DNA of 64,000 nucleotides, taken from contig JADLDO010000020.1 of NCBI GenBank assembly GCA_020846635.1, positions 248,001 through 312,000 of the forward strand. Reading direction: 5' to 3'. Both the position numbers and the translations under genes were made by a program. The notes under the pieces are model-generated. The model made no database searches, was not told the DNA's origin, and saw only the letters and a list, made by a program, of their open reading frames with translations. This DNA is from Caldilineaceae bacterium (GTDB lineage: Bacteria > Chloroflexota > Anaerolineae > Caldilineales > Caldilineaceae). Positions 10,043 to 33,385 of this stretch are shown piece by piece. Within the stretch, counting starts at the first letter, position 1, and the number at the start of each line of letters is the position of its first letter.

Positions 10043-11587
<1,545 letters not shown>

Positions 11588-14018: not shown

Positions 14019-14104
14019 AACATTCTCCTGTGGTCAGTTAACTGGATCGTTGAAAATTTGCACTGGACGTCGAAAGCCCCGCCACCCCACAGTGGGGCAG
14101 TTGC

Positions 14105-14620
14105 TTACAGGTCAGGATTTGCTTTTTGATAGCGTGCCAAAAGAAGCGCGCCCAACAACGCTACCAGCAGCAAGATCGCGGTCATCTCAAAGGGTAGAAT
14201 ATAGCGAGTAAAGAGCGCCATGCCTACGGTTTCCGGCGCACCCCCATTGATGGTCGATGTCGCCGTTGCCCCGCTGGGTGTCTCCACAAAGGCATAGATC
14301 ATGCTGGCGATGAGCGTCACCCCCAGGAGGATGCCCACAAAGGGGGTCCATGTGCGATGGCTGGCGCGCGTCTCAATCTTCTCGCTGCCAATCAACATAA
14401 TGACAAAGAGAATCAAAACCACGATGCCACCTGCATAAATAATTACCTGGGCCGCGGCCAAGAACTGCGCCTCGAGCGTGACATAAAATATGGCTAGGGT
14501 GACAAAGTTAACCAGCAGAAACAGAGCGCTGTGAATCGGTATACGGCTCGTAATCACCCCCACCGCGGAGGCTAGACAGACCGCGCCGATGACGATGAAA
14601 AAGAGAATAGATGGTGTCAT
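14105..14620 (-). CDS. nuoJ: NADH-quinone oxidoreductase subunit J (complex I no. 1)
   Basis: A 171-residue, five-helix membrane subunit when begun at ATG 14620; the upstream extension to 14707 is hydrophilic and unlike the family. The conserved YAGGIVVLILFVIMLIG segment, which holds the pi-bulge helix of NuoJ, is clear. It lies between nuoI and nuoK in the standard order. Confidence 0.93.
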   Translation of the reverse strand: MTPSILFFIVIGAVCLASAVGVITSRIPIHSALFLLVNFVTLAIFYVTLEAQFLAAAQVIIYAGGIVVLILFVIMLIGSEKIETRASHRTWTPFVGILLGVTLIASMIYAFVETPSGATATSTINGGAPETVGMALFTRYILPFEMTAILLLVALLGALLLARYQKANPDL

Positions 14621-14715
14621 CGTCTCATACTCCTCATAGACTTCGTGCGTCGGGCTGTGCGGCTCCCCTTCAGCGGCCTTTGCGCCAGATAGAAAGAGGA
14701 GCCGCACAGCTTGGA

Positions 14716-15186
14716 TTAATCTGGGCGAATGACCACGTTGGCTTCGGTCGGGTTGAGCAGTACGTCTTTGGTCAAGACGAAATCACGGCGGTTGTAACTC
14801 GCCATTGCAAACTCATGCCCCAGGACAATCGCCTCGGTGGGGCAGGCTTCCTCACAGTCGCCGCAAAAGAGGCAGCGCAGCAAGTTAAGCTCATAGACCG
14901 ATGCATAGCGCTCCCCAGGCGAATGGGGATTGTTGGGATCGTTCTGCTCTGCCTCTACGTAGATTGCGCCGGTGGGACAGGCGGCCTCGCAGAGCATACA
15001 GCCAATACAGCGCTCCATGCCATTTTCATAGCGGCGCAGTTCGTGCTTGCCCCGGAAGCGCGGATAGAGTGGAACCGGCTCTTCGGGGTATTGGGTCGTG
15101 ACAGGCTTCGTGGCAAACTGCTTGAGGGTGACCCCCATCGATTTGCCAATCTCGACTGCACCCCTGATGAAGTTGTTTAGGGCCAT
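14716..15186 (-). CDS. nuoI: NADH-quinone oxidoreductase subunit I (ferredoxin-like)
   Basis: A 156-residue peripheral-arm subunit with two [4Fe-4S] motifs: [12 protein letters not shown] at about residue 60 and [12 protein letters not shown] at about 100. These form clusters N6a and N6b, which pass electrons to NuoB. The N-terminal amphipathic helix contacts the membrane arm. Downstream nuoJ starts 95 bases away. Confidence 0.96.
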
Positions 15187-15251
15187 CTTTGCTATTTCCC
15201 TTTACTCAACCATTTCTTAGTGAACTAAGATTGTCGTGTTTGTGCATGTAA

Positions 15252-15282
15252 CCCTCCCGGAAGCTTAAAGCTTCCGGGAGGG
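15252..15282. repeat. Perfect 15-bp palindrome between nuoH and nuoI
   Basis: CCCTCCCGGAAGCTT (15252-15266), one A, then its exact reverse complement (15268-15282), in the 104-base gap. There is no T-tract, and it lies inside an operon, so mRNA processing or stabilisation (REP-like) is more likely than termination. Related copies occur at 16349-16381 and 7229-7274. Confidence 0.85.
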
Positions 15283-15290
15283 AAGGCGGT

Positions 15291-16277
15291 TCATTTGAAG
15301 AAGACCGTCAGGAGGACGGTGATGATCATGTAGGCGACCGAGACGGGCAGCAAGAATTTCCAGCTAAAGGCCATCAGTTGGTCATAGCGGGGGCGACCCA
15401 CGCTGGCGCGCACCCAAACAAAGATAAAGAGAAGAATCAGCACCTTGGCGGCTAGGACAAAAGGGCCAAGCCAGACAATGTCTCCCAGGAACCCAAACGG
15501 CAGCCGGTAGCCACCGAAGAAGAGGGTCGTCATGAGCACGCTCATGGTGATCATGTTCATGTACTCGGCGATCATAAAGAGCGAGAACTTGAGACCGCCA
15601 TATTCGGTTTGATAGCCCGCAACCAACTCGTTTTCGGTTTCGGGCAGGTCAAAGGGACTGCGATTGGTCTCCGCCAGGATGCAGATAAAGAAGAGCGGAA
15701 ACATGAGCCACAGCCACAGCCATTCCCACCAGACGCGCGGGGCTTCGACCAGGCCGACGAGGCTGAAGCTGCCCGCCAAGATCAAAATGCTGACCAAGAA
15801 CATGCCCATCGGCAGTTCATAGGAGATCATCTGTGCCGCAGAACGCAGCGCGCCCAGGAGCGAATAGTTGTTGTTGCTGCTCCATCCTGCCAGAATCAGC
15901 CCATAGCTCTCGATACCGGCAATGGCAAGAATCCAGAGAAAACCGACGTTGACATCGGCCACCACGGGGACGCCTCTGGCAATGGGCAGGACTGCCCAAA
16001 TCGCAATGGCCGGCAGCAGCGCTAACGCGGGGCCGAGAAGATAGACCCATTTGTCAACATGGTTCGGAATAATCTCTTCTTTGAAGATCGCTTTGACACC
16101 ATCCGCCGCAGGCTGGAGCAGGCCGAATTTACCGGCGCGATTTGGGCCATAGCGGGCACCAAAACGCCCAATGAGTTTGCGCTCGTACCAGGTGAGATAG
16201 GCGGCAGCGGTCAGCAAGCCGAAAATGAGCGCGAGTGTGCGCAGTATTGGAAAGACAACTAAATTCAGCCAGTCCAT
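15291..16277 (-). CDS. nuoH: NADH-quinone oxidoreductase subunit H (complex I no. 1)
   Basis: A 328-residue, eight-helix membrane subunit that forms the quinone-binding chamber with NuoB and NuoD. Conserved loops are present: RFGARYGPNRAGKFGLLQP and the acidic LAETNRSPFDLPETENELVAG, followed by EYGGLKF and the Glu of MIAEYMN. Length and motifs are typical. Palindromic repeats flank the gene on both sides. Confidence 0.96.
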   Translation of the reverse strand: MDWLNLVVFPILRTLALIFGLLTAAAYLTWYERKLIGRFGARYGPNRAGKFGLLQPAADGVKAIFKEEIIPNHVDKWVYLLGPALALLPAIAIWAVLPIARGVPVVADVNVGFLWILAIAGIESYGLILAGWSSNNNYSLLGALRSAAQMISYELPMGMFLVSILILAGSFSLVGLVEAPRVWWEWLWLWLMFPLFFICILAETNRSPFDLPETENELVAGYQTEYGGLKFSLFMIAEYMNMITMSVLMTTLFFGGYRLPFGFLGDIVWLGPFVLAAKVLILLFIFVWVRASVGRPRYDQLMAFSWKFLLPVSVAYMIITVLLTVFFK

Positions 16278-16348
16278 ACGGTATTCCCTGTTCCTGCATG
16301 GTGATGGTTGCTAATGGACTTATGCACTTGAAGCGCATTGCCACCGAA

Positions 16349-16381
16349 ACCCTCCCGGAAGCTTCGAGCTTTCGGGAGGGT
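16349..16381. repeat. 15-bp palindrome between nuoG and nuoH
   Basis: ACCCTCCCGGAAGCT and AGCTTTCGGGAGGGT are separated by TCG. All 15 positions pair if one G-T wobble is allowed. It is almost the same sequence as the palindrome at 15252 and also lies within the nuo operon without a T-tract. Confidence 0.8.
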
Positions 16382-16402
16382 GATAGTCCTGTGTGTAGGT
16401 GA

Positions 16403-18979
16403 TTAGGCGGCGACGGCCATTTCTTGGATGGCTACTTTGACTGTCACCGTCGTAATCGCCGCGTCGTCGCGCAAGTTGCCTACGGGTGCGCCCGCCAAGC
16501 TCTCTGGAATCCAGAGCGTGCCGGGCAAGACCTGTTCGCTGATTTTGGCTGCAAGGGTCAATTCGCCGCGCTCGTTTTGCACAACCAGCGGCGTACCCTC
16601 CTCGATACTGAGCTTTGCGGCATCGCTGGGGCTAATGCCCGCCGCGCGGCCAAAGGCCATGTTGCGCATCTGAGGCGTGAGCCGGAACATGTTGCCATCG
16701 TCATAGGTGACTGTACCGCTGACTAAGATCAGTTCTTGATCGGAGGGGCTAGCCACTTCGCCCTGCTTGAGTTCGCGCAACTGCGGCGCAGGACGCACGC
16801 TTGCGGCATCATACTGCTGCCCCTGATCGCCCAACGCGTCCCAGGTCAACCCTTTGTAGAGGGGGACGGTTTCGGAGATTTCACGGGTAATCGCCCGCTC
16901 GTCGGCATAGGGCCAGTTGTTGCCCATGCGCGTTGCCAGGTGATCCAGGATCATCCAGTCGGGGGCCGCTTTGCTTTGCGGGTCACGTACGGCCTTGTTG
17001 GCACGCTGCACGCGACGCTCCAGGTTGGTGAATGTGCCATCGACTTCGGCCCAACTTACAGCGGGCAGGACAACATCCGCCAGGGCTGCGGTTTGCGTCA
17101 ACATCAATTCCTGGACAACAAGAAGGTCAAGCTGCTCTAGGTTCTTGGCCCAGGTGTCATCTTCGCTCGCCGGGTCTGCGCCCATGACATAGAGCGCTTT
17201 GATTGCGCCGCCTGCCTCGTCCAACATGGCCTTGTAGCCCTTGCCGGGAGCGGTGGGCAGATTGCTCGTCCCCCACGCCTTTTGCAGAGCAGCGCGCGCT
17301 TGACTGTCATCCAGGGAAGCATAGCCCGGAAGCTGGTTGGGCAGAACCCCCATATCGCGCGCGCCGTGGCTGTTGGCGTCGAGGCCAATGTAAGAAAGGC
17401 GGTCATAGTGCCCCGTGATGTGGGCCAAGTTGGTGAGGCCATCGCGCACGATTTCGCCGCTTGTGCCTCGCGCTACCAGCGGGCCATAGATGATGAGCGC
17501 GTTCTTGCTTTGCGCCAGCAGTTCAGCGGCAGCTTTGACCGTTGCCGCATCAACGCCGGTCTGCTTGGTCAATTGATCATCGTTCACTGAAGGAAACTTG
17601 CCATCAACTTTGGGCTTCTCCTCCGGCAATGCCGCCGCTGCATAGCTCGACAGGGCATTGAGCAGCGCCGCTTCACTGCCTGGGCGATAGCCGAGATAGG
17701 GTTGTTCATAGCGGGTTAGCTCAATCTTGCGCGGGTGGGCAATGATGAGCTTGAGCCCGCCTTTGCGAATAGCTCGCTTCAGATGTACATCAAGAATCGG
17801 CAACTCTTCGCTTGGGTCAACGCCAAAGAGCATGACCGTATCCACCGCAGGATTTGGCCCATATTGCGGCTTCATCACATCAGCTAGGGCAGGGATACCG
17901 CCGGGCAGGGCTGCCATTGCGCTGCCGTCGCGGTAGTCAAGATTGTTGGTCCCCACCATCTGGCGGAAGAAGCGCTGGAAGAGATAGTTGGATTCATTGG
18001 AGAGCTTGGGGCTGCCAATGCCACCAATTGCATCTGCGCCATGCTGCTTCTTGACGGCACTGAGTTTGTCGGCGACAAATTGCAGCGCCTCTGACCAGGT
18101 TGCCGGGGCCAGTTGCCCATTCTTGCGTACCAGCGGTGTGGTCAGCCGTTCTTCGTGGTTGACCCACCCGTAGGCAAAGCGTGTTTTGTCATCGATCCAT
18201 TGATCGTTGACCAGCATGTTCTCGCGGCCCACCACGCGGCGCACGCGGTGGGTGCGGCTGTCCAGGCGGACGTTGCTGCCGATGGAGTCGTGCGGTGAAA
18301 TGCTTGCGGTGCGAACCACCTGCCAGTGGCGATAGTCAAAGCGGGCGACACGGTTGGTCAATGCGCCCACAGGGCAGATGTCAATGATATTGCCGCCCGT
18401 CTTGGAATCTACGGGTTTGCCATCTTGAATATCGATGATGGTTTCGCCGCCACGCTCGAAGAGACCGAGTTGGGGCTTGTCTTCCCACTCCTCCAGATAG
18501 CGGATACAGCGCCAGCAGACGACACACCGTTCTTGATCCAGGACAATCGTGTCGGAGATCAGATAGTGCTTCTTCTTGCGCCGCTTGGCCTCAACCAGTT
18601 GGCTGATGCCAGGGCCAAAGCGCATGGTCAGATCCTGCAAAGGACACTCGCCCCCCTTGTCACAGATGGGACAGTCGAGCGGGTGGTTGAGCAGGATAAA
18701 GGCCAGGTTGGCATCCTGCATCGCCTCGACTTGCTCTGTGTTGGTGCGGACGACCATGCCCTCTTTAACGGGTACAGAGCAAGCGGTTTGCAGCATGGGG
18801 CCGCGTGGCCCTTCGATCTCCACCATACACATGCGGCAGCAGGCCACAGGGTCTAGCTTCGGATGGCTGCAAAAGACGGGGATTTCGATGTTTAACGCGG
18901 CGGCTGCATCGACCACCAGGGTCCCATTGGGTACAGTGACCGGTTGATCATCAATGGAAAGGGTGACTTGATCGCTCAT
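16403..18979 (-). CDS. nuoG: NADH-quinone oxidoreductase subunit G
   Basis: An 858-residue peripheral-arm subunit. From the N-terminus: a [2Fe-2S] domain (CSHPKLDPVACCRMCMVEIEG), the His-Cys3 motif HPLDCPICDKGGEC for cluster N3-type binding, a CVVCWRCIRYLEEW...ICPVGAL [4Fe-4S] motif, and then a molybdopterin-oxidoreductase-like domain (about 240-750) that is non-catalytic in complex I. It ends with the molybdopterin dinucleotide-binding fold. The stop of the upstream nuoEF gene is 9 bases before its start. Confidence 0.96.
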   Translation of the reverse strand: MSDQVTLSIDDQPVTVPNGTLVVDAAAALNIEIPVFCSHPKLDPVACCRMCMVEIEGPRGPMLQTACSVPVKEGMVVRTNTEQVEAMQDANLAFILLNHPLDCPICDKGGECPLQDLTMRFGPGISQLVEAKRRKKKHYLISDTIVLDQERCVVCWRCIRYLEEWEDKPQLGLFERGGETIIDIQDGKPVDSKTGGNIIDICPVGALTNRVARFDYRHWQVVRTASISPHDSIGSNVRLDSRTHRVRRVVGRENMLVNDQWIDDKTRFAYGWVNHEERLTTPLVRKNGQLAPATWSEALQFVADKLSAVKKQHGADAIGGIGSPKLSNESNYLFQRFFRQMVGTNNLDYRDGSAMAALPGGIPALADVMKPQYGPNPAVDTVMLFGVDPSEELPILDVHLKRAIRKGGLKLIIAHPRKIELTRYEQPYLGYRPGSEAALLNALSSYAAAALPEEKPKVDGKFPSVNDDQLTKQTGVDAATVKAAAELLAQSKNALIIYGPLVARGTSGEIVRDGLTNLAHITGHYDRLSYIGLDANSHGARDMGVLPNQLPGYASLDDSQARAALQKAWGTSNLPTAPGKGYKAMLDEAGGAIKALYVMGADPASEDDTWAKNLEQLDLLVVQELMLTQTAALADVVLPAVSWAEVDGTFTNLERRVQRANKAVRDPQSKAAPDWMILDHLATRMGNNWPYADERAITREISETVPLYKGLTWDALGDQGQQYDAASVRPAPQLRELKQGEVASPSDQELILVSGTVTYDDGNMFRLTPQMRNMAFGRAAGISPSDAAKLSIEEGTPLVVQNERGELTLAAKISEQVLPGTLWIPESLAGAPVGNLRDDAAITTVTVKVAIQEMAVAA

Positions 18980-18988
18980 GGCTGAAAT

Positions 18989-21004
18989 TTACCTATTTCC
19001 CTCATCGTGCGGGGTGCGTGTGCCCTGCCGGGTTCCATTGCCCGCCACATGGTCACGGTTGAGAGGCATATCACCAATCGGTGGTATTGCACTGTCGCGC
19101 AACACACTCGCCGAGCCGGTATCCGGTCGATAGATAGGCCGGATGGGAAGGAGCGGGCCAATGTCCTGTGGGTTGGTTTCGTCGATGTGGGTAATAAATT
19201 CGTTGCGGAATTTTGCAAGATTGCTTTGCAGGCCCCACACCGCAGCATCGCCAAATGGACAGAAACTCTTGCCTGCAATGAAGCGGCTGACGTGCTCCAT
19301 CAATTCTAAATCCTTGTCACGACCCCCGCCCGCCTCGATACGCATTAAGATCGTTTCGAGCCAGCCGGTTCCCTCGCGACAGGGCGTACACTTGCCACAG
19401 CTTTCTTCGCGATAGAAGCTGAGGGTGCGGCGAGCGACCTCGACCATCGAGGTGCGTTCATCTATGGCAATGACACCTGCCGAGCCGAGCAATGATCCCG
19501 CCGCGGCTACGCTCTCATAGTCGAGTGCCGTGTCAATCTGATCCATGGTCAGCAACTTCATTGAAAGGCCACCCGGTACGATGGCTTTGAGTGGCGCGTT
19601 TTCGTCTTGTGGCCCGCCGCCATGGGTGTAGATTAACTCGCGCAGCGGTACGGCGTGGGGCAATTCGTACAGGCCCGGATATTTCACGTTGCCGGAAAGG
19701 CAGAAGATGCGCATCCCTGGGCTTTTTTCAGTGCCAAAGCCCTTATACCAATCGACACCATGCCGCATGACCTGGGTTACGTTACAGATCGATTCGACGT
19801 TGTTGACAATCGTCGGCTTGGCATACAAGCCCTCAACGGCCGGGAAGGGAGGCTTCATGCGCGGGTGACCACGATAGCCCTCTAAACTGCTCAGGAGCGC
19901 AGTCTCTTCGCCACACTCATAGGCTCCGGCCCCGCGATGGACGACAATCTCCAGGTTTTTGTCTGTGCCAAAGATGCCCTGGCCTAGATAGCCTTTAGCC
20001 TTTGCCTCTTGGATAGCGCCCACTAAGCGTGTATAGGCAAAGTAGTATTCGCCGCGGATGTAGATAAAGGCCTTTTCCGCTTGAATCGCAAAAGAACTGA
20101 GGATGATGCCCTCAATCAATTGATGCGGGTCATATTCCATGACCATGCGATCCTTGAAGGTTCCTGGTTCCGACTCGTCGGCGTTGACCACAAGATAGCG
20201 GGGGAAGGCAGGGGCCAGGAAGCTCCACTTCGTGCCGGTGGGGAAGCCTGCGCCGCCGCGGCCACGAATACCGCTCGCCTTGACCTGCTCCAGCACTTCT
20301 TCCGGCTTCATTTCGGTCAGTACACGTTTGGCCGCGCCATAGCCGCCATCGGCCTCAAAGGTTTCGAGGGTGTGGCTGTTGGGCTTGGCTGCGCGTGCCA
20401 GCAGGTAGAGCTGTTCCATGCCACCGTGGCGATAAGGGCCGGCGGCTTTGCCTTCGCCCTGGGGATCGCCTTCAGGCGTCCAACGCTCCAGGGTCTCAAA
20501 GGCTTTGCCCTGGTTGACCAAATTGATCATCTTGGCGACATCTTCCGCCGAATCCAACTCCTCGAAATAGCGGATTTTGCCACTCTTGGTTTCGGTAATA
20601 CTGACCATCGGCGCAGTGCCACAGGAGCCAAGACATTCCATATGGTCGAGGGCAAACTTTGTATCTGCGGTCTGCTCGCCGTGGTGAATGCCCAGTTGGT
20701 CTTCCAGATGGTGCATACACTCGCTGGAGCCGCGCAACATGCAAGGAACGTTGGTGCAGACTTCAATATGATAGTCGCCCTTTGGTTCCTCATGGAACAT
20801 ATTATAGAAGCCAACCACTGCGCCAACTTCTGCCGGCTCAAGCTCCAACATTTCGGCTAGCTCGTTTTGTGCTTCAACTTTGCAATAGCCAAACTCGCGT
20901 TGGATGACATAGAGCGCGGGCAGAATTGCCGAACGCTGACGCCCGGCGGGATATAGATCCATCCATTTACGGATTTCTGCACGTACTGACTCGGAAAGAA
21001 TCAT
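18989..21004 (-). CDS. nuoEF: NuoE-NuoF fusion, NADH-oxidising module of complex I
   Basis: A 671-residue protein joining two normally separate subunits. Residues 1-165 are NuoE: a thioredoxin-like fold with four [2Fe-2S] ligands, the Cys pair in CTNVPC near residue 82 and the pair in ECLGSCG near 125. Residues about 190-610 are NuoF, with the FMN/NADH glycine-rich GRGGAGFPTG near 247 and the [4Fe-4S] SCGKCTPCREG near 535, closed by CPFGDAAVW. The last 45 residues are an Arg/Asp-rich tail. The join resembles the HoxF-type arrangement of NAD-reducing hydrogenases, but the gene order is that of complex I. No frameshift or stop separates the halves. Confidence 0.94.
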   Translation of the reverse strand: MILSESVRAEIRKWMDLYPAGRQRSAILPALYVIQREFGYCKVEAQNELAEMLELEPAEVGAVVGFYNMFHEEPKGDYHIEVCTNVPCMLRGSSECMHHLEDQLGIHHGEQTADTKFALDHMECLGSCGTAPMVSITETKSGKIRYFEELDSAEDVAKMINLVNQGKAFETLERWTPEGDPQGEGKAAGPYRHGGMEQLYLLARAAKPNSHTLETFEADGGYGAAKRVLTEMKPEEVLEQVKASGIRGRGGAGFPTGTKWSFLAPAFPRYLVVNADESEPGTFKDRMVMEYDPHQLIEGIILSSFAIQAEKAFIYIRGEYYFAYTRLVGAIQEAKAKGYLGQGIFGTDKNLEIVVHRGAGAYECGEETALLSSLEGYRGHPRMKPPFPAVEGLYAKPTIVNNVESICNVTQVMRHGVDWYKGFGTEKSPGMRIFCLSGNVKYPGLYELPHAVPLRELIYTHGGGPQDENAPLKAIVPGGLSMKLLTMDQIDTALDYESVAAAGSLLGSAGVIAIDERTSMVEVARRTLSFYREESCGKCTPCREGTGWLETILMRIEAGGGRDKDLELMEHVSRFIAGKSFCPFGDAAVWGLQSNLAKFRNEFITHIDETNPQDIGPLLPIRPIYRPDTGSASVLRDSAIPPIGDMPLNRDHVAGNGTRQGTRTPHDEGNR

Positions 21005-21033
21005 GTTGCGTCTCGTTTCCTCTTGCGCCCTTC

Positions 21034-22881
21034 TTAGCGGTCAACATCGCCCAAGACGATGTCAATGGAGCCGATGTTGGTGACAACGTCGGAGATCGTA
21101 AGCCCCTTGCACATCTTGCTAATGGCGAAAAGATTGTTAAAACTTGGCCCACGCACATGCAGGCGATAGGGAACAGCCGAGCCGTCGCTCACCACAAAGT
21201 AACCCAGTTCACCCTTGCTGGCTTCAATGCCCTGATAGACGATGCCAGGAGGCACGCGGAAACCTTCCGTCATCAGCTTAAAGTGATGGATGAGAGCTTC
21301 CATGCTCACATCCAACTCGGCGCGGGGGGGCAGGCTGACCTTGCGGTCGTCTATGCGGAAGATGCCGTCGGGCAGGTTGTTGACGGCCTGTTCAAGGATA
21401 CGTACACTCTGACGCATCTCCTCGATACGCACAAGATAGCGCGCATAGCAGTCGCCATCCGTAAAGACCGGAACCTTGAAGTCATAATTCTGGTAATCGC
21501 CATACGGCGCATCGCGGCGCAGGTCCCAATCAACACCGCTCCCACGCAGCATCGGGCCAGTGAGACCCATGTTGATCACGTCTGCGCGGCTTAGGTAGCC
21601 AATGCCCTGCAAACGTTCCTGCCAGACAGGGGCATCCGTCATCATGCTCTCGTAGTCGTCAAAGTAGCGGGGCAGGATGGCGAGCAGATCGCGTAGATTG
21701 GTCAGGAAGGCGGGGGGCAGGTCCTTCCAAACGCCGCCGATGCGAAGATAGCTCACGGTCAGACGGGCTCCGCAGGCCATTTCGAATAGGTCGAGGATGC
21801 GTTCGCGCTCACGCGTGGCGTACATCATCACGGCGAGGCCTGTGCCGGAGACATCCATGACGTGGGTTCCCAGCCAAAAGAGATGTGAGGCGATACGCTG
21901 TAACTCGCCCATGATCACGCGGATGACTTTGGCACGTTCCGGCACGTCGATACCCAACAGCTTTTCGACGGTGAGACAGTAGCCGAAGTTGTTGAGCATG
22001 GGCGAAAGATAGTCCATGCGATCTGTATAATAGACAAAGTCTTTATAGCGCTTGTTCTCGCCGGTCTTTTCAAAGCCGCTGTGCAGATAGCCCAAATCGG
22101 GATCGATGTTGACAACCGTCTCCCCATCAAGCTCGACCACCAGACGCAACACACCGTGGGTGCTGGGGTGGTGGGGGCCCATGTTGAGCACCATGTTCTG
22201 TATATCCATGCCCGGCGGCAGCGCAGGCTCGACGCTTTCCGCAGGCAGAACCTGTTTGCCCAAAGTCTCAAACTGGGGGTCGTCCCAGGTCAAGGTAAAG
22301 GGAACTTCTTCGCCCCCCTCGGGGATGTCCTTGCGCAGCGGATGATAGGGCCAGCGTTCGGGCATGAGAATGCGTCGCGGGTCGGGATGACCGGCGAAAT
22401 TCACCCCCATCAGATCAAGCACTTCACGTTCCGGCCAAATTGCACCGGCAAAGACGCCCGCCAAACTCGGCACAGTGGGCTTTGTCGGGTCGCCATCGAT
22501 GCTGTTGGCGGGCGACAAAATCATCAGGTGCTGCTTGCGTTGATAGGAACGCAGTTGATAGGCGGTATGAAATCGTGCATCGCTGCCGGCAATGGGCAGC
22601 TTCAAACGGTCGATGGCTGTGACATCCACCAGCGCCTCATAGGCCAAACTTGGGTCATTCTTGACGAATTCGGCGAGTTCTACGAGCCGTTCCGGCTTGA
22701 CATAGACCATTTGCTGGCCGTTGTGCAGGCCAGCCTCAAGGATGTCTTCGCCAAAACGTTCGACAATGCGCTTGGTATCTTCACTCTCGCCGGTCGGCAC
22801 TGGGGCCAATGCAGGGATTGACGGATCGTTTAGCCCCGGCAGAGTTTCATATTCACGATAACGCGGAGAGACATTTAGCAT
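21034..22881 (-). CDS. nuoCD: NuoC-NuoD fusion, quinone-site subunit of complex I
   Basis: A 615-residue fusion. Residues about 30-190 are NuoC (including GAIWPEREVLDLMGVNFAGHPD) and about 225-615 are the 49-kDa NuoD domain (NMGPHHPSTHGVLRLVVELDGE, VDWDLRRDAPYGDY). The His of GPHHPSTHG belongs to the quinone-reduction site. I place the start at ATG 22881 because GTTGGAG lies six bases upstream; the in-frame TTG 22893 is inside that ribosome site. The ribosome site itself is tandemly duplicated (22888-22909). NuoCD fusions are known in enterobacteria. Confidence 0.94.
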   Translation of the reverse strand: MLNVSPRYREYETLPGLNDPSIPALAPVPTGESEDTKRIVERFGEDILEAGLHNGQQMVYVKPERLVELAEFVKNDPSLAYEALVDVTAIDRLKLPIAGSDARFHTAYQLRSYQRKQHLMILSPANSIDGDPTKPTVPSLAGVFAGAIWPEREVLDLMGVNFAGHPDPRRILMPERWPYHPLRKDIPEGGEEVPFTLTWDDPQFETLGKQVLPAESVEPALPPGMDIQNMVLNMGPHHPSTHGVLRLVVELDGETVVNIDPDLGYLHSGFEKTGENKRYKDFVYYTDRMDYLSPMLNNFGYCLTVEKLLGIDVPERAKVIRVIMGELQRIASHLFWLGTHVMDVSGTGLAVMMYATRERERILDLFEMACGARLTVSYLRIGGVWKDLPPAFLTNLRDLLAILPRYFDDYESMMTDAPVWQERLQGIGYLSRADVINMGLTGPMLRGSGVDWDLRRDAPYGDYQNYDFKVPVFTDGDCYARYLVRIEEMRQSVRILEQAVNNLPDGIFRIDDRKVSLPPRAELDVSMEALIHHFKLMTEGFRVPPGIVYQGIEASKGELGYFVVSDGSAVPYRLHVRGPSFNNLFAISKMCKGLTISDVVTNIGSIDIVLGDVDR

Positions 22882-22887
22882 TGGCTG

Positions 22888-22932
22888 CTCCAACTATTCT
22901 CCAACTATTGAAGATCAGAACTGAAGATCAGA
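22888..22932 (-). repeat. Two tandem duplications upstream of nuoCD, one copying the ribosome site
   Basis: CTCCAACTATT is repeated head to tail at 22888-22898 and 22899-22909; on the minus strand this doubles the segment AATAGTTGGAG, which includes the ribosome-binding sequence. Right next to it TGAAGATCAGA occurs at 22909-22919 and 22922-22932. Confidence 0.75.
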
Positions 22933-22952
22933 GTATTTCTGATATGAATGGC

Positions 22953-23510
22953 TTATGCAGGTTGCTTGGCGCGCAGTGATTCCAGCGGTGCAATATCATC
23001 TGGACGAACAAAGGGTTCTGCTGCTTCGGCGCGGTAGTATTGGGCGAAAGTCTCTTTGCGCTGTTTGTCACGCAGCTTGTCAAGCGCAAAGAGCAGCGCT
23101 TCCGGGCGGGGGGGACAGCCAGGCACATAGACATCGACAGGCAGTATCTTGTCTACACCCTGAATGATGGCGTAATTGTTAAACGGGCCTCCGGCGCTGG
23201 CGCAGATGCCCATGGCGATAACCCACTTGGGCTCCAGCATTTGGTCATAGATGCGCTTGATGACCGGGGCCATCTTGTTGGCAACGCGACCGGAGACAAT
23301 CATCAGGTCTGCCTGGCGCGGGCTGGCACGCATGATTTCCGCGCCATAGCGCCCAATGTCATTGCGCGGGTCGCTGGCGGCAATCATTTCCATCGCACAA
23401 CAGGCAAGGCCAAAGAGCAAGGGCCATGTGCTGTTGGCACGACCCCAGTTTACCAAACTTTCCAGAGTGGTGGTTACGATGCCCTCTGGTAATTTATCTT
23501 CAAGACCCAT
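22953..23510 (-). CDS. nuoB: NADH-quinone oxidoreductase subunit B
   Basis: A 185-residue peripheral-arm subunit carrying the terminal [4Fe-4S] cluster N2. The tandem cysteines are visible in [12 protein letters not shown], with the further ligands in [12 protein letters not shown] and VPGCPPRPE. It hands electrons to the quinone bound between NuoB, NuoD and NuoH. It lies between nuoA and nuoCD in the usual order. Confidence 0.96.
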
Positions 23511-23573
23511 CTTAAATCCTTCCTATAGACAGTATTGCCTTTGTGGGCCAATGCTGGTAGGGCATGAAACGAG

Positions 23574-23948
23574 CTAGTCTTGCAGGTCGAGCGCGCCCTT
23601 TTTCCACTCATAGAGCAGCCCGATGATCAGGATCAGGAGGAAGAAACCCATGGGCAGCAGTGCCATGCCCATGCTGAAGTTGTCGCGCAGGTCACGGATG
23701 ATCGCTGCCCACGGATACATAAAGAGTATCTCAATATCGAAGAGGATAAAGAGCATTGCCACCAGATAATACTTGACTGGGAAGCGACGGCGCGCATCGT
23801 GAAAGGGGATGATCCCCGACTCATAGGCTTCTAACTTTTGTTTGTTGGCTTTGGTTGGGCCCAAAAGGGCGGGGACAGTAACGGCGATGATTGAAAAGCC
23901 GGTGGCAATTACCACCAGAATGAGCAGCGGTAAGTAATCAATAGCCAC
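23574..23948 (-). CDS. nuoA: NADH-quinone oxidoreductase subunit A (complex I no. 1)
   Basis: A 124-residue, three-helix membrane subunit with the family segment KLEAYESGIIPF and the helix YYLVAMLFILFDIEILFMYP, including its conserved acidic residues. The start is GTG 23948, preceded by GGAGAGG nine bases upstream. It is the first gene of the minus-strand complex I operon, which faces the second complex I operon across a 742-base divergent region. Confidence 0.95.
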   Translation of the reverse strand: MAIDYLPLLILVVIATGFSIIAVTVPALLGPTKANKQKLEAYESGIIPFHDARRRFPVKYYLVAMLFILFDIEILFMYPWAAIIRDLRDNFSMGMALLPMGFFLLILIIGLLYEWKKGALDLQD

Positions 23949-24690: not shown

Positions 24691-25047
24691 ATGCTGAGTA
24701 ACTATGCCTTCGTTCTCATCTTGAGTGTGCTGGCGTTTACATTGCCGCTGGTTGCCGTGGTTTTGGGTTGGCTGCTTGGCCCCAAGCGTCCCGACTCGGT
24801 GAAGAATGCAACCTATGAAAGCGGTGTTGAGACGATTGGCGATACATGGGTGCAGTTTCGAGCCCAGTATTATCTGATCGGGCTTATCTTCTTGATCTTC
24901 GATGTTGAAGTCATCTTCCTTTTTCCAATCGCCCTTGCCTATGAACAATTGAGCCTGTTTGGGGTCGCAGCAACAATCACCTTTGTGGTGATCCTGCTCT
25001 TGGGCCTCTTCTTGGAATGGCGTAAAGGGGCATTGGAGTGGCAGTAA
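24691..25047 (+). CDS. nuoA2: NADH-quinone oxidoreductase subunit A (complex I no. 2)
   Basis: A 118-residue, three-helix subunit with NATYESGVETIGD and the helix YYLIGLIFLIFDVEVIFLFP. It is clearly a paralogue, not a copy, of nuoA no. 1, since outside the motifs the sequences differ widely. It opens a plus-strand operon that encodes only membrane-arm subunits. Confidence 0.95.
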   Translation: MLSNYAFVLILSVLAFTLPLVAVVLGWLLGPKRPDSVKNATYESGVETIGDTWVQFRAQYYLIGLIFLIFDVEVIFLFPIALAYEQLSLFGVAATITFVVILLLGLFLEWRKGALEWQ

Positions 25048-25095
25048 GCTATTTAGAACTCTCATTCTTCGAGTTGTTATGAGTTGGAGGAATCA

Positions 25096-26319
25096 ATGCT
25101 GAATTGGAGTGCTGGTCTCTCCGAATTCCTAATGAGCCTGGGGATGCCTGAAGCGGTTGCGATGGGCGTTACCATGTTTGTAGGTGCGCTGGTGCTGGCG
25201 AGCATCGGGCCGGTCTTGGCGCTGATACTCATCCATATCACGCGCAAGGTGATTAGTCGTCTCCAGGATCGCCTCGGGCCTAACCGCCTGGGCCCGTGGG
25301 GTATTTTTCAGTCGGCGGCAGATGCGGTTAAGCTTCTTTCCAAAGAGGATATCCGTCCCGCCGAAGCTGATGTGATTGCGTATACGATTGCGCCTCTCCT
25401 GTCCGTTTTTGGCGTGATCATGTCGCTGGCCGTAATTCCCTTTGCCAATGGCTTGATTGGCGTTGACCTAAATGTCGGTGTGCTCTTTTTGGTGGCGTTG
25501 GGGTCGGTTGGGATCATGGCGGCGTTGATGGCGGGCTGGAGCAGCAACAACAAGTATGCACTGCTGGCTGGTTTCCGCGTGGTCGCACAACTGCTCTCGT
25601 ATGAAATCCCCATGGTGCTGGCGATGTTAGGGCCGGTGCTGCTGGTGGGGACGATGCGCATGAATGAACTGGCGGCCTTCCAGCGTTTAGAGATTGGCGG
25701 CTTCAACCTGGGGTTCGGCTATATTGGCTTCATCATGCCTGCCGTGGTGCTGATCTACTTCACCAGCGCGCTGGCCGAAAGTGAACAGACGCCCTTTGAC
25801 TTGTTGGAAGCTGAGTCGGAGTTGATCGCCGGTTTCCATATTGAGTATTCGGGCATGAAGTTTGCCATGTTCTTCCTGGCTCAATTCCTCAATGCCTTTT
25901 TCCTCGGCTCGATCATGGTGGTGCTTTTCTTCGGTGGGTGGCAGGGGCCATTTGTGGATCAGGTTCCCATCCTGGGGTTGGTCTATTTCTTGGCGAAAAG
26001 CTTTGCTGTCTATACCATCATGCAGTGGGTGCGAGGGACTTTCCCCCGCGTGCGCATCGACCAGATGATGGCCTTTGCGTGGAAGGTGCTGGTGCCGCTG
26101 ATTCTGGGGTTGATCCTGTGGCAGATGGTGGCGCTGAAGCTGCCCGTGGCAACATGGATTCAGTATGTTCTGATCTTCGCCGGCAATGTGGTGGGGATTT
26201 GGGTGGTCGTAAGAGTTCTCTCCCGCTACTTCCGCAGCGAGACGTTGCGCACCAAGCGTTCTTTTGCGCCTCGGTCGCTCATCGGCACGATGCGACCCGC
26301 CCCCGAAGCGGGCGATTAG
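25096..26319 (+). CDS. nuoH2: NADH-quinone oxidoreductase subunit H (complex I no. 2)
   Basis: A 407-residue membrane subunit. The start is ATG 25096, with GGAGG five bases upstream, rather than TTG 25084. The quinone-chamber loops are present ([38 protein letters not shown]). It is longer than NuoH no. 1 because of an extra N-terminal helix region and a basic C-terminal tail of about 50 residues. Two positions differ from the usual pattern: NR is replaced in the SEQTPFDL segment, and the Glu of the AEY motif is Gln (residue 263, FLAQFLN). Whether the quinone site works as in NuoH no. 1 is open. Confidence 0.94.
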
Positions 26320-26452
26320 ACTGGGGACAGGGCCGCAATATGAGCAGAGGGATAGCATGTTGTGGCCGTATGGCGAGTCGAAGCGTATCATTGGTTCATA
26401 GAACAAGTTGGATGCGGCTAGAACCGCAACATGCGTAAGGGGTTGTGCGACG

Positions 26453-26989
26453 ATGGATATATTGTCTGAACTATTTCCGCTGCCACCAATACCAACGATT
26501 CAGCAGGCAGTTTTTATCGCACTGGCGCTTTTTACGGTGGTAGGTGCGTTGATTGTGGCGGTTGCGCCCAATCTATACCATAACGCCTTAGGATTGATAG
26601 CTTCCTTTTTTGGCGTGGCAGGTGTCTATGCGCTGCTGGAGGCCGAATTCCTGGCCGTCAGCCAAGTGCTTATCTATGTGGGGGCAATCTCCACCCTGAT
26701 CACCTTTGCCATCATGCTCACGCGTGGCATGATGTATGGTCGTACATCATCGACCAACCGGCAGGTGGTCACAGCGTCGATCATGGCCGCGCTTCTGTTC
26801 TTCGTGCTGTGGGGCGTCCTCAGTCATGTGCCGTGGCCGGAAGTTGGCGCAGACTTGCCGAATGGCGAGTTGATCATCGCAACGTTGGGCGAACTTTTTG
26901 TCACAAGCTATTTGATTCCTTTTGAAATGATGGCGTTGCTGCTGTTAGTGGCGCTGGCCGGTGCCTTGATGCTGGCACGCGATAACTAA
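26453..26989 (+). CDS. nuoJ2: NADH-quinone oxidoreductase subunit J (complex I no. 2)
   Basis: A 178-residue, five-helix subunit starting at ATG 26453; the in-frame TTG 26408 would add an unlike hydrophilic segment. The core helix [21 protein letters not shown] matches NuoJ. The 133-base gap after nuoH no. 2 shows no gene. Confidence 0.92.
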
Positions 26990-27009
26990 ACTTTAAGGAC
27001 AAAAGCATT

Positions 27010-27321
27010 ATGGTCCCGCTGACTTGGTATCTGGTTCTTGCTGCTTTTCTTTTTTGTACAGGTCTCTATACAGCCCTGGCCCGGCGTAATGCTGTGGCGG
27101 CGCTCATGGGCATTGAGCTGATGCTCAACGCTGTCAATATCAACCTAATCGCTTTCTGGCGCTATGGGACAGCGGTGGAGCTGCTGGAAGGGCAGGTGTT
27201 CGCCATCTTTGTCATCGCCGTGGCAGCAGCCGAAGTGGCGGTGGGCTTGGCGCTGGTGATTTCGGTCTACCGCGGTCGCCGCACCATCAACTTGGATGAG
27301 TTGGACACCCTCAAAGGATAG
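27010..27321 (+). CDS. nuoK2: NADH-quinone oxidoreductase subunit K (complex I no. 2)
   Basis: A 103-residue, three-helix subunit with both conserved glutamates, in [13 protein letters not shown] and [13 protein letters not shown]. It starts 20 bases after nuoJ no. 2, behind an AAGGAC-like site. Its stop codon lies in a duplicated AAAGGATAGTTG motif. Confidence 0.95.
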
Positions 27322-27363
27322 TTGCGCACGATAGAAGTAAAAGATAGTAGTAAAGGATAGTTG
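27313..27363 (+). repeat. Repeat across the nuoK2 stop codon
   Basis: AAAGGATAGTTG occurs at 27313-27324, where it contains the TAG stop of nuoK no. 2, and again at 27352-27363. A diverged copy, AAAAGATAGTAG, lies between them at 27339-27350. Confidence 0.7.
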
Positions 27364-27376
27364 TGTAGCATAGCTC

Positions 27377-27736
27377 ATGCCCAAACAGTTGTTGACCGGA
27401 ACGTTGGATGAGCAGTGTGAATTCCTCTACGATCTTGCGCTGCAAAAGATGCAGCAGGGGAACTACACTGGGGCGGTTCATGCGCTCAAAGAGATTGTCA
27501 AGCATAAGCCGGAGTTTCGCGATGCCGGTGTGGTTTTGGCCGAAGCCAAGCGGCGCAAGTCGGAACAAAGCCAATTGCTCTGGTTTGCCTTTGGGGGCGC
27601 AGCGCTCTTCGTCTTTATTGGGACAGTGCTCCAGGTGGAAAATGATTTTCTCTTTTTAGGACTCATTGCCGCAGGTGCGCTTGTTGGCTTCCTTGTGGGA
27701 AATTTAGTGCGGCGTCTACGCCGCTCGACAAAGTGA
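27377..27736 (+). CDS. Small TPR-like membrane protein inside the second nuo operon
   Basis: A 119-residue protein of unknown function encoded between nuoK and nuoL. Residues about 8-60 look like one to two tetratricopeptide-type helix pairs (ALQKMQQGNYTGAVHALKEI), followed by two hydrophobic helices (about 66-88 and 90-112) and a basic C-terminal tail, which would place the TPR part in the cytoplasm. The same strand, the short gap (55 bases) and the position inside the operon suggest an accessory or assembly role for the second complex I; that is inference. No complex I subunit of this type is known to me. Confidence 0.75.
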   Translation: MPKQLLTGTLDEQCEFLYDLALQKMQQGNYTGAVHALKEIVKHKPEFRDAGVVLAEAKRRKSEQSQLLWFAFGGAALFVFIGTVLQVENDFLFLGLIAAGALVGFLVGNLVRRLRRSTK

Positions 27737-27873
27737 TCAATCAATTATAGTTGGTGCCTGGAGCTTTTTCTTGGCCCATGCACATCACTGATTTGGCTTG
27801 AGTTTCGTATTGTAGTCCTGCATTTCAGTGTTGTGAGCGGATTCATTCCTGAACGCAAAGCGAGGTTGCTTGA

Positions 27874-30108
27874 ATGGAAGGATTTCTCAATATCGCCTGG
27901 CTGGTGCCGGTTCCACCCTTCCTAGCTTTTGTGGCGATTCTGCTTTTCCTCAACCCCAATAAAACCGTCAGCGCCCTGACCGCCATTATTGGCGCAGTGC
28001 TCAGCCTGATTATCGCATGGCCGATCGCCTTTACGGCGTTCACCACTGAGCATTTCGGCGAACACCCGGTCTATGGAGAGCTGTTCCATATTCCAACGGG
28101 CGTGACGAGCTTCATGGTGGGGTTCCAGGTTGACCCGGCCAATGCGCTGATGCTCTTTATGTCATCGTTCCTGCTGGTAATGATCTTCATCTATGCCAGC
28201 GGCTACATGACCTTCCCGGCGCATCTTGCCCCGGAGATGTATCCTGTTTCCTATCAACAGGGACGGGATCCGCGCTACAGCCGCTTCATGGCGTACATCA
28301 GCTTGTTCGCCACGGGGATGCTGGGGTTGATCGTCTCCAACTCACTGCTCACCTTCTTTATCTTTTGGGAGATCATGGGGCTGTGTTCGTATCTGCTGAT
28401 CGGTTTCTGGTATGAGAAACCGGCGGCGCGCTCTGCCAATATCAAGGCGTTCATGACCACGCGCGTCGGCGATACGATCATGCTGGTTGGCATGATACTG
28501 CTCTACATCAAGAGCGAGCCTTCGAGCCTGCAATTCAACGAGATTTTGCAGATCGGCAACTTGCAGAGCCTTGCCGAGCAGATGGTGACAATTCCGCTCT
28601 TGGACATCACGGTGCCGTGGCTGGCGCTGATTGCTGTGCTGATCTTCTTTGGCACCGTGGGCAAGAGCGCGCAATTCCCCCTCCATGTCTGGTTGCCCGA
28701 TGCGATGGAAGGGCCGACCCCTGTCAGCGCCATGATTCATGCGGCGACGATGGTTTCGGCAGGTGTCTTTTTGGTGGTGCGTCTCTTCCCGCTCTTTGCG
28801 GCTGCGGGCGAAGCCGCGCCGGGCGTGCTGCGTTTCGTTGCCTTTACCGGCGCGTTTACCGCCATCTTTGCAGCGACGATTGCTGTGGCGCAGTGGGACA
28901 TCAAGCGGGTGCTGGCCTATTCGACCATTAGCCAGCTTGGTTTCATGGTTGCTGCGTTGGGCATCGGCGCCTATGGCCCGGCACTCTTCCACCTGATTAC
29001 CCATGCCTTCTTCAAGGCGCTCTTGTTCCTCGGCTCCGGCAGCGTGATTCACGGGGTGGAGCATGGCTTCCATCACGCCCATGCGCATGATGCACATGGA
29101 CATGACGAACACGCTGCCCACGCACCGGTCGCGCTGCTGAACCGCCGCGATGGGGTGCTGGACGTGAATGATCCGCAGGATATGCGCAACATGGGTGGCT
29201 TGCTGGGGCGGATGCCCATCACCGCCTGGACCTTTATCATCGGCGGGTTGTCGTTGAGCGGGTTCCCCTTCATCACGGCTGGTTTCTGGTCGAAGGATGA
29301 GATCCTTGCTTCGGCTTGGTTTGGACAGAATACCTGGGTCTTCTGGACGTTGGCGGTCGCGGCTTTCCTGACCGCTTTCTATACGGCACGCCAGATCAGC
29401 CTGACCTTCTTGGGCCGTCCGCGCAGCGAAGGCGCGGCGCATGCGCCGGAGAGCGTCGCGTCGATGACCTGGCCTTTGATCCTGATTAGCCCCTTTGCGA
29501 TTGCTTTAGGCTGGGCGGGGATTCCCGAACACTTCCCTGTCATCGGTGGCATCATTCCAAACTGGCTGGAGCATTATCTGGAGCCTTATGTGACTTATCA
29601 GGGTTTCCATGTTGCCCACCCAGAGTTCAACATGATGCCGCTGTTGGTCTCTTTAGGGGTGGCGCTGGGCGGCTTGCTCATTGGTTTTGTGGTCTATGGT
29701 CGCGGTCTGCGTGAAGGCCAGGTTGACCCGTTGCGTAACGTGATGGGGCCGCTGTGGATGGTCTTCCACCGCAAGTACTATGTGGATGAGCTTTACAACG
29801 CAACGATCATCCCCTTCACGTTGGGATTGAGCAAGTTCCTCTACTTGTTCGATGATAAGTGGGTGATTGACCCCATTGTTGACGGAATCGGAAGCTTGGC
29901 AGTCTGGTTCTCCAAGTTGATGGCGACGATTGACCGTGTGGTGGTCGATGGCACCGTCAATGGGACTGGCTGGTTGGCCGACCGCATGGGCCGGATGCTG
30001 CGCCAAACGCAGGACGGGCATGTCCAGGTCTATTTGATGGTTGCTGTCGTAACGGTAACGGTCTGGCTGTTGTTGAAGGCCATGCCGATTCTCCTGACGC
30101 TGGTGTAG
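27874..30108 (+). CDS. nuoL2: NADH-quinone oxidoreductase subunit L (complex I no. 2)
   Basis: A 744-residue antiporter-like subunit, over 100 residues longer than NuoL no. 1. The core motifs are intact: [55 protein letters not shown]. An unusual His/Asp/Ala-rich loop (about residues 395-420, with runs such as [17 protein letters not shown]) is inserted before the conserved DMRNMGGL segment. The C-terminus carries the lateral helix and extra membrane segment of NuoL. The loop could bind metal, but that is only suggested by composition. Confidence 0.95.
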
Positions 30109-30110
30109 CA

Positions 30111-30170
30111 GGAGGGATGAAGGTTGAGGGATGAAGAGCAGAGTAGTCACTTCTCATCCCTCATCCTTAG
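30111..30170. repeat. Palindromic intergenic element, family GAGGGATGAA (copy 1)
   Basis: Left arm AGGTTGAGGGATGAAG (30121-30136) pairs with CTTCTCATCCCTCATCCT (30151-30168), with a 2-base bulge. The first 26 bases (30113-30138) match 49616-49641 at 23 of 26 positions. It lies between nuoL2 and nuoM2. Confidence 0.65.
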
Positions 30171-30262
30171 GTCAAATGGTAGTTTCGATATGAGATGCAT
30201 TGCTATTAGATTCGTTGCGGTCTTTTTGAACGCCAAAACAGGGATCTGCGGAGGATAATTCG

Positions 30263-31873
<1,611 letters not shown>

Positions 31874-31885
31874 AGGGGGCGTATC

Positions 31886-33385
31886 TTGAACGAGATCGGC
31901 TTTGGCGCACTGGGCGGGATTCTCCCTGAGATTGTCCTGCTGATCGGTGGCCTCCTGATCCTGCTGTTGGACATGGCTCAAGGCCGTGAACAAGATTCGG
32001 GGCGGGGCTTTATGGCCGTCACGGTGATCTTTCTCATCGTTGCGCTGGTGGGTGTCGTCCTGCAGTTGGGGATGGATCCGCATACTGTGATTGCGATGGT
32101 GGACATTGATCCGTTTGCGACCTTCCTCAAGATCCTGATCTATACGGGCATGATCTTGGTGGCAATCGGTGGTGGCAGTTTCATGAACAAGCACGCCACA
32201 GGGCGCGGCGAGTTCTGGACGCTCTTTATCTTTGTCACGTTGGCAATGAGCATTGCCGTGAGCGCCAACAACCTGCTTCTACTCTTCTTGGCGATTGAGT
32301 TCTTGTCAATCACCAGCTATATTTTGGCAGGCATCCTGCGTGAAAATCGTCGCAGCGCCGAGGCGGGGTTGAAATACTTCCTCTATGGCTCGGTGGCGTC
32401 GGCGGGAATGCTCTATGGCATGAGCCTGCTCTATGGCGCGAGCAGCAGCATCTACTTTACGGGAATTGCTGAAGCATTAGCCGCAAATCCAGACCTGGGC
32501 GCACTGATCCTACCTGCGGCCATGCTGACGTTGGTCGGGTTTGGCTTCAAGGCCAGCCTTGCGCCCTTCTACCAATGGGCGCCGGACGTCTACGATGGCG
32601 CGCCCACGCCCATCACCGCCTATCTCTCGACCGCTTCCAAAGCTGTTGGTTTTGCGGTGATGGCGCGCACGCTGATTGTTGCGCTGGGGGCATACCGGGT
32701 GGATTGGGTGCCGATCCTGGCAGGTTTCAGCATTCTGACCATGACCGTTGGCAATCTCATCGCCCTGCGCCAGACCAGCATCAAGCGCATGTTGGCCTAT
32801 AGCTCTGTTGCACAAGCGGGCTATGTGCTGATGGGGCTAACTGCGGTGGTCTCCAGCGGCTCCGGCGACATTACCCTGCTGGGCATGAATGGGCTTAACG
32901 GGCTCTTGCTCTATCTCTTTGCCTATCTCTTTACCAACATTGGGGCCTTTATGGTCGTGTTGGCGGTAGAAGATACCACGGGCAGCACAGAGATCGGTGC
33001 CTTTACCAATCTTGTGCAAAGAGCGCCTGGGTTGGCATGGGGGATGTTTATTCTGCTGCTCAGCCTAACGGGTATCCCGTTGACGGGCGGCTTTGTGGGC
33101 AAGTTCTATGTCTTTGGGGCTGCTGTCCAGCACCAGTATTTTTGGCTGGTGGGTGTGGCACTCATCAACGTGGGCATCGCTGCATACTACTATCTGAATC
33201 TTGTACGTGCGATGTTCTTCCCCGGCAAGGAAGATGTCGCGCCAGTGCGGCTGGCAGTGCCGGTACAGTTGCAGTTTGTGGTGATGGTTTGTGTGGTTGT
33301 CACCATCTGGATCGGGCTGTATCCACCCAATGTTCTCGAATGGGTCAACGATGCCTCGCGCCAACTGCTTGCGCTGATGCCGTAA
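31886..33385 (+). CDS. nuoN2: NADH-quinone oxidoreductase subunit N (complex I no. 2)
   Basis: A 499-residue antiporter-like subunit starting at TTG 31886, behind AAAGGGGG. Typical motifs are LKYFLYGSVASAGMLYG, APFYQWAPDVYDGAPTPITAY and IKRMLAYSSVAQAGYVLMG. It ends the second nuo operon; a strong terminator lies 26 bases downstream. There is no nuoB, C, D, E, F, G or I on this side. Confidence 0.95.
   Translation: MNEIGFGALGGILPEIVLLIGGLLILLLDMAQGREQDSGRGFMAVTVIFLIVALVGVVLQLGMDPHTVIAMVDIDPFATFLKILIYTGMILVAIGGGSFMNKHATGRGEFWTLFIFVTLAMSIAVSANNLLLLFLAIEFLSITSYILAGILRENRRSAEAGLKYFLYGSVASAGMLYGMSLLYGASSSIYFTGIAEALAANPDLGALILPAAMLTLVGFGFKASLAPFYQWAPDVYDGAPTPITAYLSTASKAVGFAVMARTLIVALGAYRVDWVPILAGFSILTMTVGNLIALRQTSIKRMLAYSSVAQAGYVLMGLTAVVSSGSGDITLLGMNGLNGLLLYLFAYLFTNIGAFMVVLAVEDTTGSTEIGAFTNLVQRAPGLAWGMFILLLSLTGIPLTGGFVGKFYVFGAAVQHQYFWLVGVALINVGIAAYYYLNLVRAMFFPGKEDVAPVRLAVPVQLQFVVMVCVVVTIWIGLYPPNVLEWVNDASRQLLALMP

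What the first reader, a model, noticed from the sequence alone, without database searches (positions are those of the whole stretch)
24691..33385. Second complex I locus with all membrane-arm genes but no peripheral arm, plus an extra gene
The plus-strand cluster encodes A, H, J, K, L, M and N but none of B, C, D, E, F, G or I, while the complete 12-gene operon faces it across a shared 742-base region. The two sets are diverged paralogues, so this is not a recent duplication. The second set may share the peripheral arm of the first, or use another electron-input module encoded elsewhere (for example ferredoxin- or hydrogenase-like). The 119-residue TPR/membrane protein encoded between K and L has no counterpart in known complex I operons.
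Basis: partly seen in the sequence, partly recalled or inferred. Interest (0 to 1): 0.75.

Follow-up and report, generated by a model that had tools for sequence, protein, structure and literature searches.

The report
Split second complex I, stretched pump subunit
The lone membrane-arm genes are half of a second respiratory complex I whose other half sits elsewhere in this Caldilineaceae-type genome; the split is ordinary for the group, but one pump subunit seems built for more pump modules than the genes supply, and a small unknown partner gene comes along.

Summary
The + strand cluster 24691-33385 encodes NuoA, H, J, K, X, L, M, N; the complete 12-gene operon faces it across 742 bp. The layout recurs in its family, Caldilineaceae (Chloroflexota), and in class relatives. 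Separated nuoBCDI with fused nuoCD is in print for Chloroflexi '2M' complexes (PMC7117926, citing Chadwick 2018). Two things are not routine. (1) X (27377-27736), a TPR-like membrane protein, is in 35 of 37 family genomes and under purifying selection. (2) NuoL2 has the 26-residue lateral-helix extension said to mark a fourth pump subunit, yet no second nuoM was found for this complex. In relatives the helix steps as about 45+26n residues, up to four units; the 12 loci counted above two units by length (11 by eye) each show one nuoM. Verdict: new variant of a known kind.

The parts
24691..25047 (+). nuoA2
   Evidence: PF00507 E 1.2e-33; 35% to nuoA1
25084..26319 (+). nuoH2, 411 aa, longer than nuoH1 (328 aa)
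   Evidence: PF00146 E 2.5e-100; orthologues in family and class
26408..26989 (+). nuoJ2
   Evidence: PF00499 E 3.3e-31
27010..27321 (+). nuoK2
   Evidence: PF00420 E 1.7e-27; NF004322 above its cut-off
27377..27736 (+). gene X: 119 aa, TPR-like helical hairpin (about residues 10-43), then two long helices holding two hydrophobic stretches (membrane hairpin by inspection)
   Evidence: 35 of 37 family genomes; in 30 loci checked K2 upstream in 30, L2 downstream in 29; model pLDDT 86; dN/dS 0.06-0.24 in relatives and own-G002
27874..30108 (+). nuoL2, 744 aa
   Evidence: TIGR01974 542 bits
29776..30009 (+). lateral helix HL of NuoL2 (residues 635-712), one 26-residue unit longer than in NuoL1
   Evidence: alignment; 71 against 45 residues; one helix in the model at pLDDT about 47-72
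30263..31873 (+). nuoM2, the only nuoM of this operon
   Evidence: TIGR01972 523 bits; own genome has two NuoM over cut-off, one per operon
31886..33385 (+). nuoN2
   Evidence: TIGR01770 363 bits
23949..24690 (.). 742-bp region between the divergent operons
   Evidence: coordinates; divergent nuoA1 seen upstream of nuoA2 in 23 of 30 H2 loci within the fetched flank
8591..23948 (-). complete first operon nuoA B CD EF G H I J K L M N (complex 1)

Best explanation
The cluster is the membrane arm of a second, complete complex I without NuoE, F and G. Its Q-module (NuoB, fused NuoCD, NuoI) is made from a separate operon on contig C47 and joins this arm, with X as a lineage-specific accessory subunit or assembly factor. 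It most likely takes electrons at NuoI from a soluble low-potential carrier, ferredoxin being the first candidate, passes them over NuoI and NuoB to the quinone (menaquinone, by analogy with the phylum), and pumps protons through H/J/K and N, M, L. It belongs to a Chloroflexota lineage in which the lateral helix of NuoL is lengthened by one 26-residue unit; here only one nuoM goes with it. Shown: gene content, second Q-module, recurring layout, common descent with joined operons, helix length, NuoM count. Inferred: co-assembly, electron donor, role of X.
For: Orphan B2-CD2-I2 at C47:324065-327635; that stretch has the window's tetranucleotide make-up, mean correlation 0.90 against 0.89-0.94 among window pieces. 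In 37 family genomes H2 orthologues occur in 35 and CD2 orthologues in 33, never CD2 without H2 (counted). B2 precedes and a NuoI gene follows CD2 in 30 of 30 loci; no B2 or CD2 in the 1.5-kb flanks of 30 of 30 H2 loci. In G031, one contig, the halves are 1.16 Mb apart. In class relatives G037, G041, G044 the same subunits lie in one operon, and Chloroflexales loci L214 and L224 carry A-B-C-D-I-H-J-K-L-M-M-N. The NuoD tree puts CD2 with the other split copies (21 rows, SH-aLRT 99), apart from CD1. Only two NuoF-family genes in the genome, EF1 and the Hox-type one. Three 2-oxoacid:ferredoxin oxidoreductase-family matches.
Against: No protein evidence of co-assembly. G029 (94% complete) and G030 (74%) have H2 but no CD2 orthologue in the bin; G003 and G015 have neither, nor X. 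G047 carries NuoE, F and G genes beside its B2-CD2-I2, so NADH input is possible in at least one relative, and complex 1's EF/G could in principle serve both arms. The genome bin has 8.6% estimated contamination.
Confidence: 0.85

Rival explanations
1. Set 2 borrows the peripheral arm (B1, CD1, EF1, G1, I1) of the neighbouring operon, giving two membrane arms on one electron-input arm.
For: Divergent neighbours in 23 of 30 family loci; no other NuoF besides the Hox-type gene; G029 and G030 show H2 without a CD2 orthologue.
Against: A dedicated B2-CD2-I2 exists and occurs with set 2 in 33 of 35 family genomes that have H2; the same subunits share one operon in relatives; G041, G044 and G054 show only the set-2 type of CD and H.
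Confidence: 0.05
2. The complex is a four-pump machine in which the single NuoM is built in twice, the lengthened NuoL helix acting as the ruler that fixes the number of pump modules.
For: Helix length 71 = 45+26; PMC9040806 reports a 26-residue HL insertion postulated to span four pumps (passages); lengths cluster in steps of 26 up to four units; nine genomes with three or four units have one NuoM over cut-off; lag 26 is the best self-match in the three- and four-unit sets.
Against: No structure or stoichiometry. Helix length may drift by tandem duplication without extra subunits. Four of 18 lengths above 76 fall off the steps by more than 3 residues. The second NuoM of 2M complexes forms a separate lineage, which suggests the extra slot wants its own subunit. 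Seven of the 16 three- or four-unit genomes have a further NuoM elsewhere.
Confidence: 0.2
3. The single-M, long-helix state is a leftover: a 2M ancestor lost its second nuoM and the helix has not shrunk, so its anchor sits further along the arm.
For: 2M relatives in the same class; L206 looks like such a loss.
Against: In the concatenated tree the single-M long-helix rows branch around the 2M clades with three changes of M number in all (unrooted parsimony), so loss would have to be old or repeated; the extra unit is kept in all six family NuoL measured.
Confidence: 0.35

Closest known systems
Chloroflexi 2M complex I (Chadwick et al. 2018, not held; seen only through passages of PMC7117926, PMC8004040, PMC6606698)
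   Same: fused nuoCD, nuoBCDI away from the membrane operon, lengthened NuoL
   Different: one nuoM instead of two; gene X between nuoK and nuoL
Chloroflexus aurantiacus second nuo set Caur_1976-1987 (PMC3150298, passages)
   Same: second complex I in the same phylum, no nuoG
   Different: B, C, D, I inside the cluster and two nuoM; no X listed in the passages
[quoted passage not shown]
   Same: no NADH module; a ferredoxin or other soluble protein is proposed as donor
   Different: single operon; helix length and X not compared here
Complex_I_1 and Complex_I_2 of Ca. Manganitrophaceae (PMC9040806, passages)
   Same: HL insertion reported in complexes of canonical gene content
   Different: other phylum; no separate B-CD-I and no gene like X mentioned in the passages seen

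Membership tests
EFG-less complex I (11-subunit type) | A, B, C, D, H, I, J, K, L, M, N all encoded | tested here: met
   set 2 in the window plus B2-CD2-I2 on C47
EFG-less complex I (11-subunit type) | no NuoE, F, G of its own | tested here: met
   NuoF family: only EF1 and a Hox-type gene in the genome; E and G were not searched on their own
EFG-less complex I (11-subunit type) | does not oxidise NADH by itself | not testable with these tools
   needs the protein
Chloroflexi 2M complex I | fused nuoCD and nuoBCDI apart from the membrane operon | tested here: met
Chloroflexi 2M complex I | HL extension in NuoL (26 residues in PMC9040806) | tested here: met
   71 against 45 residues
Chloroflexi 2M complex I | second nuoM | tested here: not met
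   one nuoM in the operon; two NuoM over cut-off in the genome, one per operon
TPR proteins (gene X) | TPR motif over curated cut-off | tested here: inconclusive
   TPR_19 matches 24 of 26 members at E<=1; window copy best E 0.0022, below cut-off; Foldseek TPR matches with E 0.08 and more, several at 1.1-1.2 A over 47-49 columns, none at E<=0.001
NiFe hydrogenase-type input module | hydrogenase large subunit in place of NuoD | tested here: not met
   CD2 scores best against NuoC/NuoD models

The most novel reading that the evidence does not exclude
The lateral helix of NuoL is a modular ruler that lengthens in 26-residue steps, one per pump module, and in many Anaerolineae, this one included, the added slots are filled by further copies of the one NuoM, giving complex I with four to six antiporter-like subunits from three genes and a higher proton yield per electron pair.
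Probability: 0.2. Interest if true: 0.88.

Novelty: new variant of a known kind. Interest (0 to 1): 0.55.

Why it matters
The proton yield of complex I is usually tied to its three antiporter-like subunits, and what the NuoL lateral helix does is debated (my own knowledge; PMC3274701 seen in a listing only). A lineage where helix length and number of nuoM genes come apart, in near-fixed steps, makes the ruler idea directly testable by structure or mass spectrometry. X adds a conserved small candidate subunit to an enzyme whose bacterial core is thought to be well known.

Tried and rejected
Hydrogenase-like input: the C23 NuoB-family hit sits in a HoxFUYH-type hydrogenase cluster; rejected as partner. 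A hidden second NuoM: the remaining antiporter-like genes are an Mrp operon on C54 and a weak NuoN-like 503-aa frame (66 bits); rejected. X as the filler of the extra slot: it is absent from 19 of 25 single-M long-helix loci, so it cannot be the general filler. X elsewhere in the phylum: 36 of 400 sampled genomes match, but apart from the own copy the listed matches are partial TPR-region stretches in frames of 229 aa or more. The hit in G048 (E 9.9e-5, 1405-aa frame) was not counted as X. Foldseek gave no match to X at E<=0.001. A PufY/protein-U match of the hairpin had E 0.5 and was not used. Pattern-based helix measuring missed 9 of 132 frames; by eye L199 and L294 hold one unit less than their length suggests, with an insertion.

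Full report
What is there. The + strand cluster encodes NuoA, H, J, K, an extra protein X, then NuoL, M and N; the facing operon is complete with 12 genes, two of them fusions. The paralogues are 29-52% identical. The genome's family was named through the scan of named genomes: the best four of 80 NuoH loci are Caldilineaceae (three by title, one Litorilinea, placed there by taxonomy).

The missing half. Searching the window's own genome (6.85 Mb, 79 contigs) for the NuoB and 49-kDa families gave three NuoB-family places and two NuoD places, one of the latter in two pieces. One of each is the first operon. A NuoB-family place on C23 lies in a HoxFUYH-type hydrogenase cluster. The third, on C47, is an operon of NuoB (304 aa), fused NuoCD (592 aa) and NuoI (266 aa) without a membrane arm beside it. 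NuoB and NuoI there keep the cysteine motifs of their clusters (by inspection). The stretch has the window's base-word make-up, which speaks against contamination.

The halves belong together. Of 61 genomes (own plus 60 relatives) 57 match CD2 and 57 match H2 when first-set copies are counted too. Within the 37 family genomes, by identity, H2 orthologues are in 35 and CD2 orthologues in 33: G003 and G015 lack both, G029 and G030 show H2 alone. In 30 of 30 CD2 loci B2 precedes and a NuoI gene follows (in L052 it is matched mainly by I1); in 30 of 30 H2 loci A2 precedes and no B2 or CD2 is seen in the 1.5-kb flanks. In the one-contig genome G031 the halves are 1.16 Mb apart. In class relatives G037, G041 and G044 the same subunits form one operon. 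Of 81 loci scored (named and unnamed), 62 have A followed directly by H, 16 have B, C, D with the operon, 3 could not be scored; for the named ones I did not look for the other half. Chloroflexales loci L214 and L224 show A-B-C-D-I-H-J-K-L-M-M-N; lifting the block B-C-D-I out of that order gives the layout seen here. The NuoD tree groups CD2 with the split copies (21 rows, SH-aLRT 99), apart from CD1. Downstream of B2-CD2-I2 a metal-dependent hydrolase, a DUF1858 protein, a 123-aa protein, an FAD oxidoreductase and an ApbC/Mrp-type iron-sulphur carrier recur in many of the 20 relatives' loci fetched, not in all.

What is known. Tang et al. (PMC3150298, passages) and PMC8004040 (passages) describe a second nuo set in Chloroflexus. 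PMC7117926 (passages), citing Chadwick 2018, states that Chloroflexi 2M complexes have nuoBCDI separated from the operon with fused nuoCD. Chadwick 2018 itself is not held. The split is therefore not new.

Gene X. It is found in 35 of 37 genomes of the family (not in G003, 69% complete, nor G015), the same 35 that have H2, and clearly in one more family, G056; also in the four named Caldilineaceae loci and in L154 (E 4e-21). Its place was checked in 30 loci: K2 upstream in 30, L2 downstream in 29 (L027 shows none). dN/dS is 0.06-0.24 in 11 measurable pairs of 12. Its first half is TPR-like but below curated cut-offs; the model (pLDDT 86) shows helices 10-26, 30-43, 47-84, 90-118, the last two holding the hydrophobic stretches. 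I read it as a hairpin-anchored accessory or assembly protein with a cytoplasmic TPR; that is inference.

The stretched helix. NuoL2 has 71 residues between the D-x-x-Y and Q-x-G marks, NuoL1 has 45. The extra residues repeat the pattern of the neighbouring stretch. All six family NuoL measured have it. PMC9040806 (passages) reports a 26-residue HL insertion, cites the view that it spans a fourth pump, and notes it also in complexes of canonical gene content. The own genome has two NuoM over NCBI's cut-off, one per operon; of the 37 family genomes 33 have two (G003, G007 and G026 counted with a partial frame), G019 three, and G006, G015 and G030 one (counted from the listing). So no spare NuoM was found for complex 2.

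Steps of 26. Of 107 distinct measured NuoL (123 of 132 frames measurable), 103 lie within 3 residues of 45+26n; of the 18 lengths above 76, 14 do, and 81, 93, 103 and 113 do not. The step was chosen after seeing the data. Of 89 distinct loci with N seen, units and nuoM are: one unit with one M 5; two with one 24; two with two 41; two with none 1; three with one 7; four with one 5; unmeasured 6. By eye L199 holds two units and L294 three. The multi-unit loci were sought with a four-unit query among 396 class genomes and I fetched only some, so these numbers are not frequencies. Of 16 genomes with three or four units searched for NuoM, nine have one over cut-off (G054, G617, G708, G665, G698, G621, G042, G546, G530), six have two (G716, G658, G491, G469, G457, G483) and G528 has three. 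These bins are 76-97% complete. Self-match of the helix peaks at lag 26 in the three- and four-unit sets, and at 27 then 26 in the two-unit set, above shuffles. The model of NuoL2 shows one helix 635-712, at pLDDT about 47-72 per ten-residue block.

Order of events. In a quick tree of 83 rows the long helix marks a clade of 74 rows, and L222 outside it; nuoM number changes three times, the split four, helix length twice, X twice. Single-M rows branch around the 2M groups, and their NuoM is sister to the first M of the 2M operons, while the second M lies with outgroup NuoM. Supports are SH-aLRT from short searches and the counts are unrooted, so the order is tentative.

Electron donor. No further NuoF beyond EF1 and the Hox-type gene and three 2-oxoacid:ferredoxin oxidoreductase-family matches favour ferredoxin; G047, with NuoE, F and G genes beside its second arm, is a caution.

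In print? The library searches touching this were made; beyond PMC9040806 I saw nothing in those listings on a long helix with one NuoM, on more than two helix units, or on X. I read passages of six papers and no whole paper that bears on it.

Noticed in passing
G000:C23:437486-451845 (part in L008): HoxFUYH-type NiFe hydrogenase cluster with a 1218-aa frame of the pyruvate:ferredoxin oxidoreductase family about 9 kb away.
   Followed up: partly
L122 (G047): NuoB-like, NuoE, NuoF and NuoG genes, with PIN-domain and M42 peptidase genes, directly beside B2-CD2-I2 in this class relative.
   Followed up: partly
L127:6989-7228 (-): A 79-aa frame between nuoK and nuoL of G050 with a weak X-like stretch (E 0.03), perhaps a remnant of X.
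   Followed up: no
window 35391-37103: A Mur-ligase gene downstream of nuoN2; similar genes follow nuoN in several class relatives.
   Followed up: no
L007:10065-13635: NuoB2 and NuoI2 both end in alanine-rich, charged tails that the first-set proteins lack; perhaps docking sites.
   Followed up: no
G000:C54:282566-283321: 503-aa frame weakly like NuoN (66 bits), away from the complex I operons.
   Followed up: partly
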